Both the position numbers and the translations under genes were made by a program. Of a stretch of 64,000 nucleotides of DNA, positions 60,540-64,000 are shown in pieces. Numbering within the stretch: the first letter of the stretch is position 1; each line of letters begins with the position of its first letter. Below the pieces are notes generated by a model, which saw nothing but the letters and a program-made list of their open reading frames with translations, was not told the origin of the DNA and did no database searches. Origin of the DNA: Streptomyces sp. NBC_01669 (GTDB lineage Bacteria > Actinomycetota > Actinomycetes > Streptomycetales > Streptomycetaceae). The stretch covers positions 2,356,001 to 2,420,000 of the forward strand of contig NZ_JAPEQG010000001.1 in NCBI RefSeq assembly GCF_026339735.1. The letters are read 5' to 3'.

Positions 60540-60974
60540 CTACTTACCGGCGATCGAGGCCTCGAACTCGGCCCGGATCTCGTCGCCGCCGCCCGAGCGC
60601 CACTTCTTCACCTGATCCTGGAAGGCGGAGATCGGCTTGCGGCCCGCGACGACGTCGAGGACGGTGTCGCTCACCGCGGTGCCGATGGAGGTGCCCTTCT
60701 TCGTCGAGGCGTCCGAGAAGTGACCGCTGGTGGGGTTGGCCTTGCCCATCTTGAGGAGTTCTTCCTGCCAGCCGTGGATCTTCGAGGCCATCTCGGACTT
60801 GCCGGGCAGGTAGATGTACTCCGGGGTGTTGGCGAGGAAGGCCAGCGGCATGGCGGTGGTCACGGCCTCGGCGTTGCCCTTGGCGGTGAGCTTGATGTCG
60901 CCGCCGGAGGTACGGGTGTAGTGCGTGCCCTCGATGCCGTTGTCGAAGGAGAGTCGGACCGGCGCATCTGCCAT
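60540..60974 (-). pseudogene. C-terminal stub of an extracellular sugar-binding protein
   Basis: The 144-residue frame (FDNGIEGTHYTRTSGGDIKL; NTPEYIYLPGKSEM; FQDQVKKWRSGGGDEIRAEFE) resembles the last quarter of LipO-type binding proteins of about 550 residues. The signal peptide and N-terminal lobes are missing. A GGAGG lies upstream of GTG/ATG codons at 60980/60974, so the stub could be translated, but it could not bind or be exported as a sugar receptor. Confidence 0.6.
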
Positions 60975-61364
60975 CGTCACAGGCACCTCCAGGGCTGATG
61001 GAGCAAGGGGGAGTGTCCCGCGATCACGATTGCGGCACGCACCAGTGACGGTGCGGCCGCTGCTCCCTCGCGGCGACAGCCACATAGTTCACGACAGTGC
61101 ACCTCAGTGGCAAGAGTTGTCCATTTCTCGTAGGTAACGAACATTTATAGACACCGAAAAGTTCCGAAGAAGGTCAGGTTTAACCCCGTTGACGACCCGG
61201 AGTCCGGCACAACGCGGGCACAAATCGACACGGAAGCGCCTCGACGAGATCGCCGAACCTCTTAACCAGTGGGTTCATCGCGGGTCCAGGACGCGACCTC
61301 GTGCTCAAATTTGCACCGATGATCGCAACTCCCAACATTCTCGAGCAGAGGCGAGTATGCCCGT
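60975..61364. other. AT-rich gap between two damaged genes
   Basis: About 390 bp without a gene. It includes an AT-rich block around 61115-61175 that likely contains the promoter of the DUF3472 gene. The breakpoint that removed the front of the binding-protein gene must lie near 60975-61010. Confidence 0.45.
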
Positions 61365-61783
61365 ATGAGCTCTCGCACGTCCAGGTCCGGCTGCGGTCGG
61401 CTCGGCCGCATCGCCGGAAGTGCCGTCGCGGCACTGGCGCTTGCAGCCGGTATCGGCATGTCCACGGCGGCCACGGCGGACGCCAACGAGGACGGCTGGG
61501 GGGACACCCCCGGCACGTACACGCACCACACCTTCCCCGCCGGGACCCCGGACCTGTCGTCCGTGACATGGAGTACCACGGTCACTGCCGACCCCGGCTT
61601 CACCTCGCACACCTTCTGGTCGCATCGGTTCGGCTTCAACCAGGGCAACGGCGGCTACATCGGCATGCAGGACAACGGGGGCGAGGACCAGTTGTTCCTC
61701 TTCTCCATCTGGGATGTGAACCAGGCCAACCCGGCAGCAAAGGCAGCTGGTGCCAGGACTTCGGCGGCGAGGGCACCGACTAC
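61365..61783 (+). pseudogene. DUF3472 secreted protein, N-terminal part (frameshifted, split)
   Basis: The frame starts with a signal peptide (RLGRIAGSAVAALALAAGIGM, AXA-like cleavage TADA) and continues into a DUF3472 domain (HTFWSHRFGFNQGNGGYIGMQ; LFLFSIWDVNQAN). At about 61728-61731 a one-base loss shifts the reading: the continuing family sequence GSWCQDFGGEGTDY is in another frame. Homology ends at 61783, where the IS element is inserted, and resumes at 63566. Confidence 0.8.
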
Positions 61784-61829
61784 CGGGCTTCAGCCCGGTG
61801 GTGACGCGAATCTCAACACTGCTCTGACC

Positions 61830-62283
61830 TCAGCTGTGGGCACGGATTCGCGCTGTCCGCCCCAGCTCGGGTCGGAGCGGCCGGTTCCGCTGCTCGATGT
61901 ACTGCTTGACGATGCTGAGCGGAACGCCGTCGACGGATCGGGCAAAGTAGGAGCCGGCCGGACTACAGGCGTTGCGTCCGTCAGTAGTGGCGGACGAGGT
62001 CGAAAAACTCCTGGCGGAGCCTGCGCGAGCTGACGCCCTTGAGGGAGTTCACCAGCTTGGAGACAGCCACTTTCGGGGGAGGTTCACGAGCAGGTTGACG
62101 TGGTTGGATTCGCCGTTGAACTTCACCAGCTCGGCTTCGAAGTCCTCGCGCACGCTCCGCATGATCTCCTCGCGGCGCAACAGGTGTCGGTGAGCGAAGA
62201 CGGAATGCTGGTATTTCGTCATGAAAACCAAGTGGACGTGAAGCCGGAAGACGCAGGGTGACGACCTGTACGAACGTTCTCAT
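61830..62283 (-). pseudogene. IS200-type transposase tnpA, multiply frameshifted
   Basis: Three minus-strand frames together spell an IS200 Y1 transposase: ENVRTGRH; RLHVHLVFMTKYQHSVF and EEIMRSVREDFEAELVKFNG; PKVAVSKLVNSLKGVSSRRL; then, after an in-frame stop, GSYFARSVDGVPLSIVKQYIEQ. The HUH motif expected as HVH reads HVN (NHVNLLV), so a catalytic His is lost. The enzyme cannot be active. Confidence 0.75.
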
Positions 62284-62309
62284 CGATACTCAGAAACCAA
62301 CTGTGCATC

Positions 62310-63527
62310 ATGATCGGTGTGCAGCTTCGGTACAGCTTCCGCCTGTACCCGAGCGCCGGTCAGTGTGCGTGGCTGGCGAAGGCGTTCGGGTGTGCGCGAG
62401 TGGTCTACAACGACGCCCTCAGGGCCCGGGAGACCGCCCGCAGCAAGGGGCTGCCGTTCCCGAAGACCGGCGACCTGTCCAAGTCGCTGATCACCGGGGC
62501 GAAGCAGACGCCGGAGCGAGCCTGGCTCGGCGAAGTCTCGGCGGTCGTACTCCAGCAGTCTCTGCGGGACCTGGATGCGGCGTACCGGAACTTCTTCGAC
62601 GGCCTGAAGGGCAAGCGCCCCCGCATGGGTGCCCCTCGGTACAAGTCGCGGAAGGACACCCGTCAGGCGGTGCGGTTCACCGCGAACGCCCGCTGGTCCA
62701 TCACGCCGGGCGGCAAGCTCAGGTTGCCGAAGATCGGCGACGTGAAGGTGAAGTGGTCCAGGACGCTGCCCTGCGTGCCGTCCACGGTGACAGTGGTCAA
62801 AGACAGCGCGAGCAGGTACTTCGCGAGCTTCGTCGTCGAGACCGGCCCGGAAGAGGTCCTGCCAAAGACGACACCCGAGGTGGGAATCGACCTCGGCCTC
62901 GGGCACTTCGCGGTCCTCTCCGACGGAACGAAGATCGACAGCCCGCGCATTTTGCGCCGGTCGGAGAAACGGCTGAAGAAGGCGCAGCGCGCCCTGTCCC
63001 GCAAGGAGAAGGGCTCCAAGAACAGGGACAAGGCCAGGACCCGCGTCGCGCGGGAACACGCCCGTGTCGCGGACGCGCGGCGCGAGTTCCATCACCAGCT
63101 CTCCATGAGGCTGATCCGCGAGAACCAAGCGGTCGCCGTGGAGGACCTGGCGGTCAAGGGACTCGCCCGCACGCGCCTGGCCAAGTCCGTCCACGACGCC
63201 GGATGGTCCGCCTTCGTGGCCATGCTGGAGTACAAGGCCGCCCGGTACGCGCGGACGTTCGTCCGGATCGGCCGCTTCGAGCCGACCTCTCAGGTCTGCT
63301 CCGTGTGCGGCGTGAAGGACGGCCCCAAGCCCGTGCACATCCGCGTCTGGACCTGCGGGACGTGCGGGACGGTCCTGGACCGGGACATCAACGCGGCGGT
63401 CAACATCGCCAAGGCGGCCGGACTGGCCGTGACAGCCTGTGGAGCGCAGGTAAGACCGGGACTCGTCCCGGCACCGCGCAGCGAAACAGGAACCCACCCG
63501 ACACCGCGGCCTTCAACGGCACGGTAG
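62310..63527 (+). CDS. tnpB: TnpB RNA-guided nuclease, intact
   Basis: A 405-residue protein. The N-terminal wedge/REC region starts LRYSFRLYPSAGQCAWL. RuvC motifs are all present: D194 in VGIDLGLGHFAV, E279 in VAVEDLAVKG, and DRDINAAVNIAKAAG with the last Asp at about 357-359. The zinc ribbon is CSVCG (330-333) and CGTCG (349-352). TnpB cuts DNA guided by an omegaRNA made from the element's right end. Full length with all catalytic residues, so probably active. Confidence 0.93.
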   Translation: MIGVQLRYSFRLYPSAGQCAWLAKAFGCARVVYNDALRARETARSKGLPFPKTGDLSKSLITGAKQTPERAWLGEVSAVVLQQSLRDLDAAYRNFFDGLKGKRPRMGAPRYKSRKDTRQAVRFTANARWSITPGGKLRLPKIGDVKVKWSRTLPCVPSTVTVVKDSASRYFASFVVETGPEEVLPKTTPEVGIDLGLGHFAVLSDGTKIDSPRILRRSEKRLKKAQRALSRKEKGSKNRDKARTRVAREHARVADARREFHHQLSMRLIRENQAVAVEDLAVKGLARTRLAKSVHDAGWSAFVAMLEYKAARYARTFVRIGRFEPTSQVCSVCGVKDGPKPVHIRVWTCGTCGTVLDRDINAAVNIAKAAGLAVTACGAQVRPGLVPAPRSETGTHPTPRPSTAR

Positions 63528-63565
63528 ACGGGAATCGCCATCCTTCAGGGCGGCGAGGATGTCAA
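63420..63565 (+). ncRNA. Predicted omegaRNA scaffold (right end of the element)
   Basis: By analogy with ISDra2 TnpB, the RNA should overlap the tnpB 3' end and run to the element end at 63565, using the adjoining host bases from 63566 as guide. The terminal hairpin CATCCT/AGGATG is seen; the 5' limit is inferred. Confidence 0.5.
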
Positions 63566-64000
63566 AGCTGCCGGATGAACGTGCCGTGGAAGGCCGGTCA
63601 CACCTACACGTTCAACGTGGCCTCGGAGGGCGGCGGCTGGTTCGGCGCCACCGTCGAGGACACCACCGCCCACACCTCGTTCAAGCTGGGCAGCATCCTG
63701 ACTCCGGCGACCGGGATCAAGACGGCCGGCATGGTCGACTGGGTCGAGTACTACGAGTGGAGCATGACCCGCTCCACCTGTGTGCAGCAGCCCTACAGCG
63801 CGGCGACCTTCGGTCTTCCCGAGGCCACGACCCTGAACAACACCCGGGTCACCGGCACGGCCACCCGGCCCGAGAACAACGGTGACTGCGCCAACGTCAC
63901 CAGCACGATCGGCCCCGACGGCGGCGAGCAGGTCCTGGGCATCGGCAACTCCACCCGGGACGCGGTGACCGACCGGGCGGGCAACTGCCTGGACGTGGAA
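63566..64000 (+). pseudogene. DUF3472 secreted protein, C-terminal part (continues past window)
   Basis: The frame resumes with SCRMNVPWKAGHTYTFNVA, then GGGWFGATVEDTTAHTSFKLG, MVDWVEYYEWSMTRSTCVQQP and a start of a ricin-type lectin repeat (DRAGNCLDVE) at the window edge. It is the downstream half of the gene interrupted at 61783. The intact protein would be a secreted DUF3472 protein with a carbohydrate-binding tail. Confidence 0.8.

What the first reader, a model, noticed from the sequence alone, without database searches (positions are those of the whole stretch)
61365..64000. DUF3472 gene split at base resolution by a TnpB element, with predictable guide and target
Removing 61784-63565 rejoins GACTAC to AGCTGC and restores the family sequence DY-SCRMNVPWKAGH. 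The omegaRNA guide should therefore be the host bases starting at 63566, and the target-adjacent motif should end in the bases before 61784 (..GACTAC). TnpB from this copy would cut the uninterrupted DUF3472 allele. The gene also has an independent one-base deletion at about 61730.
Basis: partly seen in the sequence, partly recalled or inferred. Interest (0 to 1): 0.6.

Follow-up and report, generated by a model that had tools for sequence, protein, structure and literature searches.

The report
Stranded TnpB element splitting DUF3472 gene
A small jumping-gene relic that still carries an intact-looking RNA-guided DNA cutter sits inside a Streptomyces gene; its landing site and expected guide can be read to the base, but its own jumping machinery is broken, so this is a well-resolved example of a known kind of element.

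Summary
Removing 61784-63565 rejoins the DUF3472 gene with no gap against 12 of 12 distinct homologues, all of which have one more base near 61730. The insert is an IS200/IS605-family element, single-copy in this genome. TnpB is open (405 aa) and matches ISDra2 TnpB; the right end is a covarying omegaRNA-like scaffold ending TCAA, so the guide should begin at 63566.

(2) The window's left end lacks 20 bp between two CGGG repeats, including an AGTG that resembles the IS608 left guide in place and pairing. (3) tnpA is dead. The copy therefore looks immobile. (4) No target (CTAC plus 16-nt guide) with at most one mismatch was found in 392 sampled Streptomyces genomes, so cutting of the uninterrupted allele remains possible but has no known substrate. 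New member of a known kind.

The parts
61365..61783 (+). 5' part of the DUF3472 gene (host); one base fewer than homologues near 61730
   Evidence: Pfam PF11958; alignment with 12 homologues
61780..61783 (+). CTAC, target-adjacent motif / left cleavage site in host DNA; base -5 (61779) is A, where 30 of 31 relatives with a complete left end have G
   Evidence: 12 of 12 homologues have G at -5
61784..63565 (+). IS200/IS605-family element, single copy in this genome (next best DNA match 71%)
61784..61798 (+). left-end hairpin CGGGCTTCAGCCCGG directly abutting CTAC; 20 bp present in relatives between CTAC and this hairpin are missing
61875..62293 (-). tnpA (Y1/HUH) remnant: 3 frame-changing indels, 2 nonsense codons, start ATG to CTG, second HUH His to Asn
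   Evidence: Pfam Y1_Tnp split over two frames
62310..63527 (+). tnpB, 405 aa, open; RuvC acidic residues and zinc ribbon present
   Evidence: Pfam PF01385, PF07282, PF12323; PDB 8bf8/8h1j E about 3e-71
63446..63565 (+). right end / omegaRNA 3' scaffold (analysed stretch; true 5' end unknown)
   Evidence: 25-sequence alignment, covariation
63456..63471 (+). scaffold hairpin 1
   Evidence: 98.6% of cells paired
63535..63556 (+). terminal hairpin; A63540 x C63551 mismatch, in this alignment found only in the window copy
63532..63535 (+). GAAT, same letters as the IS608 right guide, 5' of the terminal hairpin
   Evidence: sequence; IS608 GR: GAAT in PMC5934647
63562..63565 (+). TCAA, right cleavage site, same letters as IS608
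   Evidence: PMC5934647
63566..63585 (+). predicted guide (about 16-20 nt), DUF3472 codons
   Evidence: inferred from right-end position; guide rule from PMC8612924
63566..64000 (+). 3' part of the DUF3472 gene (continues to 64390, beyond the window)

Best explanation
An IS605-type element (divergent tnpA and tnpB, IS608-like right end) inserted 3' of a GCTAC in a DUF3472 gene without target duplication. Its tnpA was probably already decayed on arrival, so a TnpA acting in trans is the likely mover. Afterwards the left end lost 20 bp by deletion between direct CGGG repeats, taking away the presumed left guide AGTG; the host gene lost one base; and base -5 changed from G to A. What remains is a probably immobile element with an open TnpB and an omegaRNA whose guide would be AGCTGCCGGATGAACG.., able in principle to cut only a GCTAC-AGCTGCCGGATGAACG allele and so be copied into it by repair. 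Shown: boundaries, motif, missing left-end segment, tnpA lesions, open TnpB, covarying scaffold. Inferred: the order of events, trans mobilisation, immobility, the role of AGTG, RNA production and cutting.
For: No gap at the junction in 12 of 12 homologues. 31 distinct left ends with the full spacer: GCTAC 29, GTTAC 1, CCTAC 1; AGTG in 25 of 31. Removing the element right after TAC gives proteins that read on in 5 of 12 other insertion sites judged by eye; the best, the allophanate hydrolase of L154, matches Pfam AH_C over 120 residues to 120 profile positions across the join. IS608 uses CL TTAC, GL AAAG, CR TCAA, GR GAAT, with A+16:T-3 and A+17:T-4 pairs (PMC5934647, passages); AGTG and CTAC would keep both pairs. 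tnpA lesions against an open tnpB. Window-only changes: tnpB 23 of 43 synonymous (neutral share 0.28, P 4e-4), tnpA 12 of 34 (P 0.22). Scaffold: 7 of 15 pairs with changes on both sides, 0 of 500 shuffles as high; sliding the partners by 1-3 columns drops pairing from 96.6% to at most 52.1%. Lesions: 1 in the host gene (1244 bp) against 5 in tnpA (414 bp), P 0.005.
Against: No empty allele with CTAC plus a matching guide was seen, so the ancestral site is inferred. The window's motif is ACTAC; an atypical insertion into ACTAC would explain it too. Folding the window's right end alone is only modestly better than shuffles (z -1.81, 7 of 200 as good), and its terminal hairpin has a broken pair. 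6 of 31 relatives lack AGTG. The lesion test assumes equal rates in tnpA and host gene and independent lesions, and the count was chosen after looking. The synonymous test uses columns fixed among relatives, and the direct comparison of tnpA and tnpB ratios is not significant (P 0.17). No RNA or cutting data.
Confidence: 0.85

Rival explanations
1. Same anatomy, but the copy is fully dead: TnpB is open only because the insertion is recent, and the A63540 mismatch plus the degraded motif mean that no working ribonucleoprotein or target is left. (Not exclusive with the anatomy and history above.)
For: tnpA and left end broken; mismatch in the terminal hairpin found only here; no target found.
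Against: TnpB shows the synonymous share seen in relatives; the scaffold is otherwise conserved; one mismatch in a 9-pair stem need not abolish binding.
Confidence: 0.4
2. TnpB and omegaRNA are kept for a host function at this locus (domesticated), not as element baggage.
For: tnpB open while tnpA is decayed; 23 of 43 window-only changes synonymous.
Against: Relatives that still have full ends show similar ratios; the insertion looks recent relative to tnpA decay; no homologous DUF3472 locus among the 12 aligned carries an insert at the site.
Confidence: 0.05
3. tnpA decayed after insertion here, so TnpB has outlived immobilisation for a long time under selection for homing.
For: 34 of 414 window-only changes in tnpA against 43 of 1215 in tnpB (P 2.5e-4).
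Against: The host gene, presumably inactive since the insertion, shows a single small lesion in 1244 bp against five in 414 bp of tnpA.
Confidence: 0.15

Closest known systems
IS608 (Helicobacter pylori), IS200/IS605 family
   Same: Insertion 3' of a tetranucleotide; subterminal hairpins; right cleavage site TCAA and right guide GAAT; in relatives a candidate left guide just 5' of the left hairpin that would make the same two pairs to positions -3 and -4 (PMC5934647, passages)
   Different: Motif (G)CTAC instead of TTAC; candidate left guide AGTG instead of AAAG; the window copy has lost that segment and has a broken tnpA
ISDra2 TnpB (Deinococcus radiodurans)
   Same: TnpB homologous over residues 8-384 (PDB 8bf8, 8h1j; E about 3e-71); right-end RNA with about 16 nt of flanking guide; motif equals the insertion motif (PMC8612924, passages)
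   Different: 5'-TTGAT motif there; cutting was shown there, here only predicted
Related Streptomyces elements (for example S. pini L072, Streptomyces sp. CNQ085 L083)
   Same: TnpB 84-89% identical in the 12 compared; same right end
   Different: Complete left ends behind GCTAC; tnpA intact in L071, L072, L073, L077 and L083, broken in L070, L152, L154 and L156

Membership tests
IS200/IS605 insertion sequences (IS605-type) | Y1 HUH transposase TnpA | tested here: met
   PF01797 matches in two frames, but only a broken remnant
IS200/IS605 insertion sequences (IS605-type) | Insertion 3' of a fixed short motif without target duplication | tested here: met
IS200/IS605 insertion sequences (IS605-type) | Subterminal hairpins and a right cleavage/guide pair as in IS608 (TCAA, GAAT) | tested here: met
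   IS608 values from PMC5934647
IS200/IS605 insertion sequences (IS605-type) | Left guide 5' of the left hairpin (used in excision and insertion in IS608) | tested here: not met
   The 20 bp that would hold it are missing in this copy; AGTG present in 25 of 31 relatives. The element descends from the family, but this copy should not be called a working insertion sequence
IS200/IS605 insertion sequences (IS605-type) | Mobility | not testable with these tools
   no transposition data
TnpB / OMEGA RNA-guided nucleases | TnpB sequence with RuvC acidic residues and zinc ribbon | tested here: met
   Pfam; alignment to ISDra2 TnpB; D191 from PMC8612924, the other two residues recalled
TnpB / OMEGA RNA-guided nucleases | Structured right-end RNA ending at the element border | tested here: met
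   covariation at DNA level; no Rfam family matched
TnpB / OMEGA RNA-guided nucleases | Guide RNA production and target cutting | not testable with these tools
   needs RNA sequencing and an interference assay
DUF3472 (PF11958) | Profile match on both sides of the insert | tested here: met
   the 3' part alone is below the curated cut-off (21.6 against 24.8 bits)

The most novel reading that the evidence does not exclude
A tnpB-omegaRNA unit that can no longer transpose survives as a purely site-specific, RNA-guided homing element: it spreads only by cutting the one GCTAC-DUF3472 allele recorded in its guide, while the changed -5 base of its own flank would shield the locus from its own TnpB if the element were ever lost from it.
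Probability: 0.08. Interest if true: 0.6.

Novelty: new member of a known kind. Interest (0 to 1): 0.33.

Why it matters
It is a natural case in which guide, motif and probable original target can be read from one locus, and in which transposition and RNA-guided cutting have been separated by mutation. It also yields a compact rule for this Streptomyces group (motif GCTAC, candidate left guide AGTG, right end TCAA) that predicts motif and guide for further copies. I did not find this motif in print, but the look was narrow: (TnpB, TAM, CTAC) held 0 papers; one search held 1, held 13 (12 listed) and held 17 (5 listed), and none of those was opened for this question.

Tried and rejected
Rfam search of 61300-64000 with E up to 1 gave only a CRISPR-repeat match far under its gathering score (E 0.53): rejected.

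Homologues and empty alleles. (3' part, 199 genomes) had matches in 106, most of them short; I took the nine best loci besides the window's own (L010-L018) and dropped the rest. (5' part, 392 genomes) had 12 genomes with matches, own included. Together 20 loci went into and collapsed to 12. One search (199 relatives, 3' part) gave 3, own included. One search (199 genomes, overlapping the first set) gave 9, of which one was new (L192). None of the 13 carries CTAC plus the guide.

Reading frames at other insertion sites. Codon statistics over 13 sites were uninformative (1 usable). I then joined and read 12 of the 13 (L161 left out, whose output was cut, so L093 and part of L083 were not fully seen): 5 read through (L083, L154, L074, L072, L127), 7 did not or could not be judged. 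In one search only L154 is strong; L083's Pfam match spans the join but is under its cut-off, L074's passes it by about 4 residues, and those of L072 and L127 stop before it.

Left ends. 35 rows came from a pattern; not counted as complete: L039 (the window), L082 and L095 (no motif found) and L164 (short). L115 was dropped beforehand. Left ends missed by the pattern or too close to a locus end were not counted: among those seen, L099 and L178 have CTAC, L100 does not; L116 and L088 were not judged.

Second targets. Own genome, up to 3 mismatches: 5 places, the same number as the reversed control, one being the element border itself. 392 genomes, up to 2 mismatches: 24 genomes, each with exactly 2; the reversed control matched more genomes by eye; I did not examine what genes these lie in.

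Other. L141 and L132 were dropped from the TnpB codon set because their frame is broken. The intactness table (29 loci) leans towards tnpB because tnpB makes up most of the query and the loci are the best hits. The DUF3472 5' part had no match in plasmids.

Full report
Setting. The window is G000:C3:2356001-2420000 of a 10.8 Mb genome in 5 contigs with 57 matches to the TnpB C-terminal family. That it is a Streptomyces is inferred from the named relatives of its TnpB; the species was not identified.

Observation. The 5' part (61365-61783) and the 3' part (from 63566) both match DUF3472, the latter under the curated cut-off. With the flanks joined, 12 of 12 distinct homologues align with no gap at the junction, and all 12 carry one base more near 61730. 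The join cannot slide, because the end bases differ. The gene continues to 64390, and the two halves are the only DUF3472 matches in the genome.

The element. 61784-63565 is single-copy in the genome; the next DNA match is 71%. TnpB (62310-63527) has the expected Pfam domains and matches ISDra2 TnpB over residues 8-384. The 12 relatives compared are 84-89% identical in TnpB, with pairwise dN/dS of 0.16-0.25 against the window.

Right end. Every listed right-end hit except one interrupted copy (L085) ends in GTCAA at the same place (rows are partly redundant). Over 25 aligned right ends (24 distinct), two hairpins keep 96.6% of cells paired; 7 of 15 pairs have changes on both sides; 0 of 500 shuffles reach these values, and slid versions pair at most 52.1%. 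The window's right end alone folds only modestly better than shuffles (z -1.81). GAAT and TCAA are the right guide and right cleavage site of IS608 (PMC5934647, passages). The window is the only one with an A x C mismatch at one pair of the terminal hairpin.

Left end and motif. In relatives, conservation starts at GCTAC and the sequence upstream differs from copy to copy. Of 35 left-end rows, 31 have the full spacer: GCTAC 29, GTTAC 1, CCTAC 1; 25 of 31 have AGTG just 5' of the hairpin. In IS608 the left guide AAAG pairs A+16 with T-3 and A+17 with T-4 of TTAC; AGTG with CTAC would keep both pairs, G pairing with C at -4. This assignment is my inference. The window has CTAC directly against the hairpin: 20 bp between two CGGG copies are missing, AGTG included. 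The base at -5 is A in the window but G in 12 of 12 homologues and in 30 of 31 relatives, so the original site was probably GGCTAC.

Is CTAC host DNA? In the window, counting it as element would leave the host four bases short against 12 of 12 homologues. In 5 of 12 other sites read by eye, removal right after TAC gives a protein that reads on; by Pfam only the allophanate hydrolase of L154 is strong, with 120 residues on 120 profile positions across the join.

tnpA. Against L072 the window's tnpA has three frame-changing indels, two nonsense codons and no ATG start, and the second His of the HUH motif reads Asn (which His pair is catalytic is recalled). Four other relatives (L070, L152, L154, L156) also have broken tnpA frames; L153 aligned too poorly to judge. 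Window-only changes are denser in tnpA (34 of 414) than in tnpB (43 of 1215; P 2.5e-4); relative L070 shows no such difference (P 0.61). In tnpB 23 of 43 are synonymous (neutral share 0.28, P 4e-4), in tnpA 12 of 34 (P 0.22); the direct comparison of the two is not significant (P 0.17).

Order of events. The host gene has one small lesion in 1244 bp against five in 414 bp of tnpA (P 0.005). If both decayed from the moment of insertion this is unlikely, so tnpA was probably broken before arrival and the element moved in trans. Broken or missing tnpA beside near-complete tnpB is common in the family: by my reading, 27 of 29 loci with near-complete tnpB and 13 of 29 with near-complete tnpA, a set biased towards tnpB. 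The own genome holds many tnpA-like stretches of 68-76% identity; I did not test whether any is intact.

Target. In ISDra2 about 16 nt past the right end guide TnpB, and the motif equals the insertion motif (PMC8612924, passages); TnpB is proposed to restore or drive the element by cutting empty sites (same paper; PMC11870625, abstract and introduction). Here the guide would be AGCTGCCGGATGAACG... Of the 12 aligned homologues, 11 lack CTAC at the site; L017 has GCTAC but mismatches the guide. No match with at most one mismatch was found in 392 genomes, none exact in viral contigs, and none in the own genome with at most two mismatches. So the cutting claim has no known substrate in what I could search.

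Verdict. A confirmed, cleanly resolved insertion of a known kind of element, made more interesting by the loss of both transposase and presumed left guide while TnpB and its guide stay readable.

Noticed in passing
whole genome G000: 57 TnpB matches in one genome, twelve of them with the same score (73.8 bits), spread over contigs C3, C4 and C5.
   Followed up: no
L085:3700-5535: In Streptomyces sp. AC1-42W the right-end hairpin of a relative seems to be interrupted by about 1.8 kb: an insertion into the omegaRNA scaffold.
   Followed up: no
L076-L081: Streptomyces barkulensis: six contigs break at the element; three distinct left flanks and three distinct right flanks mean at least three near-identical copies, probably recent activity.
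   Followed up: no
L074:2378: A relative sits inside what reads as an IS630-like DDE transposase gene (IS630 is recalled): one insertion sequence nested in another.
   Followed up: partly
window 60540-61085, minus strand: Open frame of 181 aa beside the DUF3472 gene without any Pfam match.
   Followed up: no
L039:4566-5390: The C-terminal part of the DUF3472 protein looks like a ricin-B-type lectin repeat (by eye, recalled; not searched).
   Followed up: no
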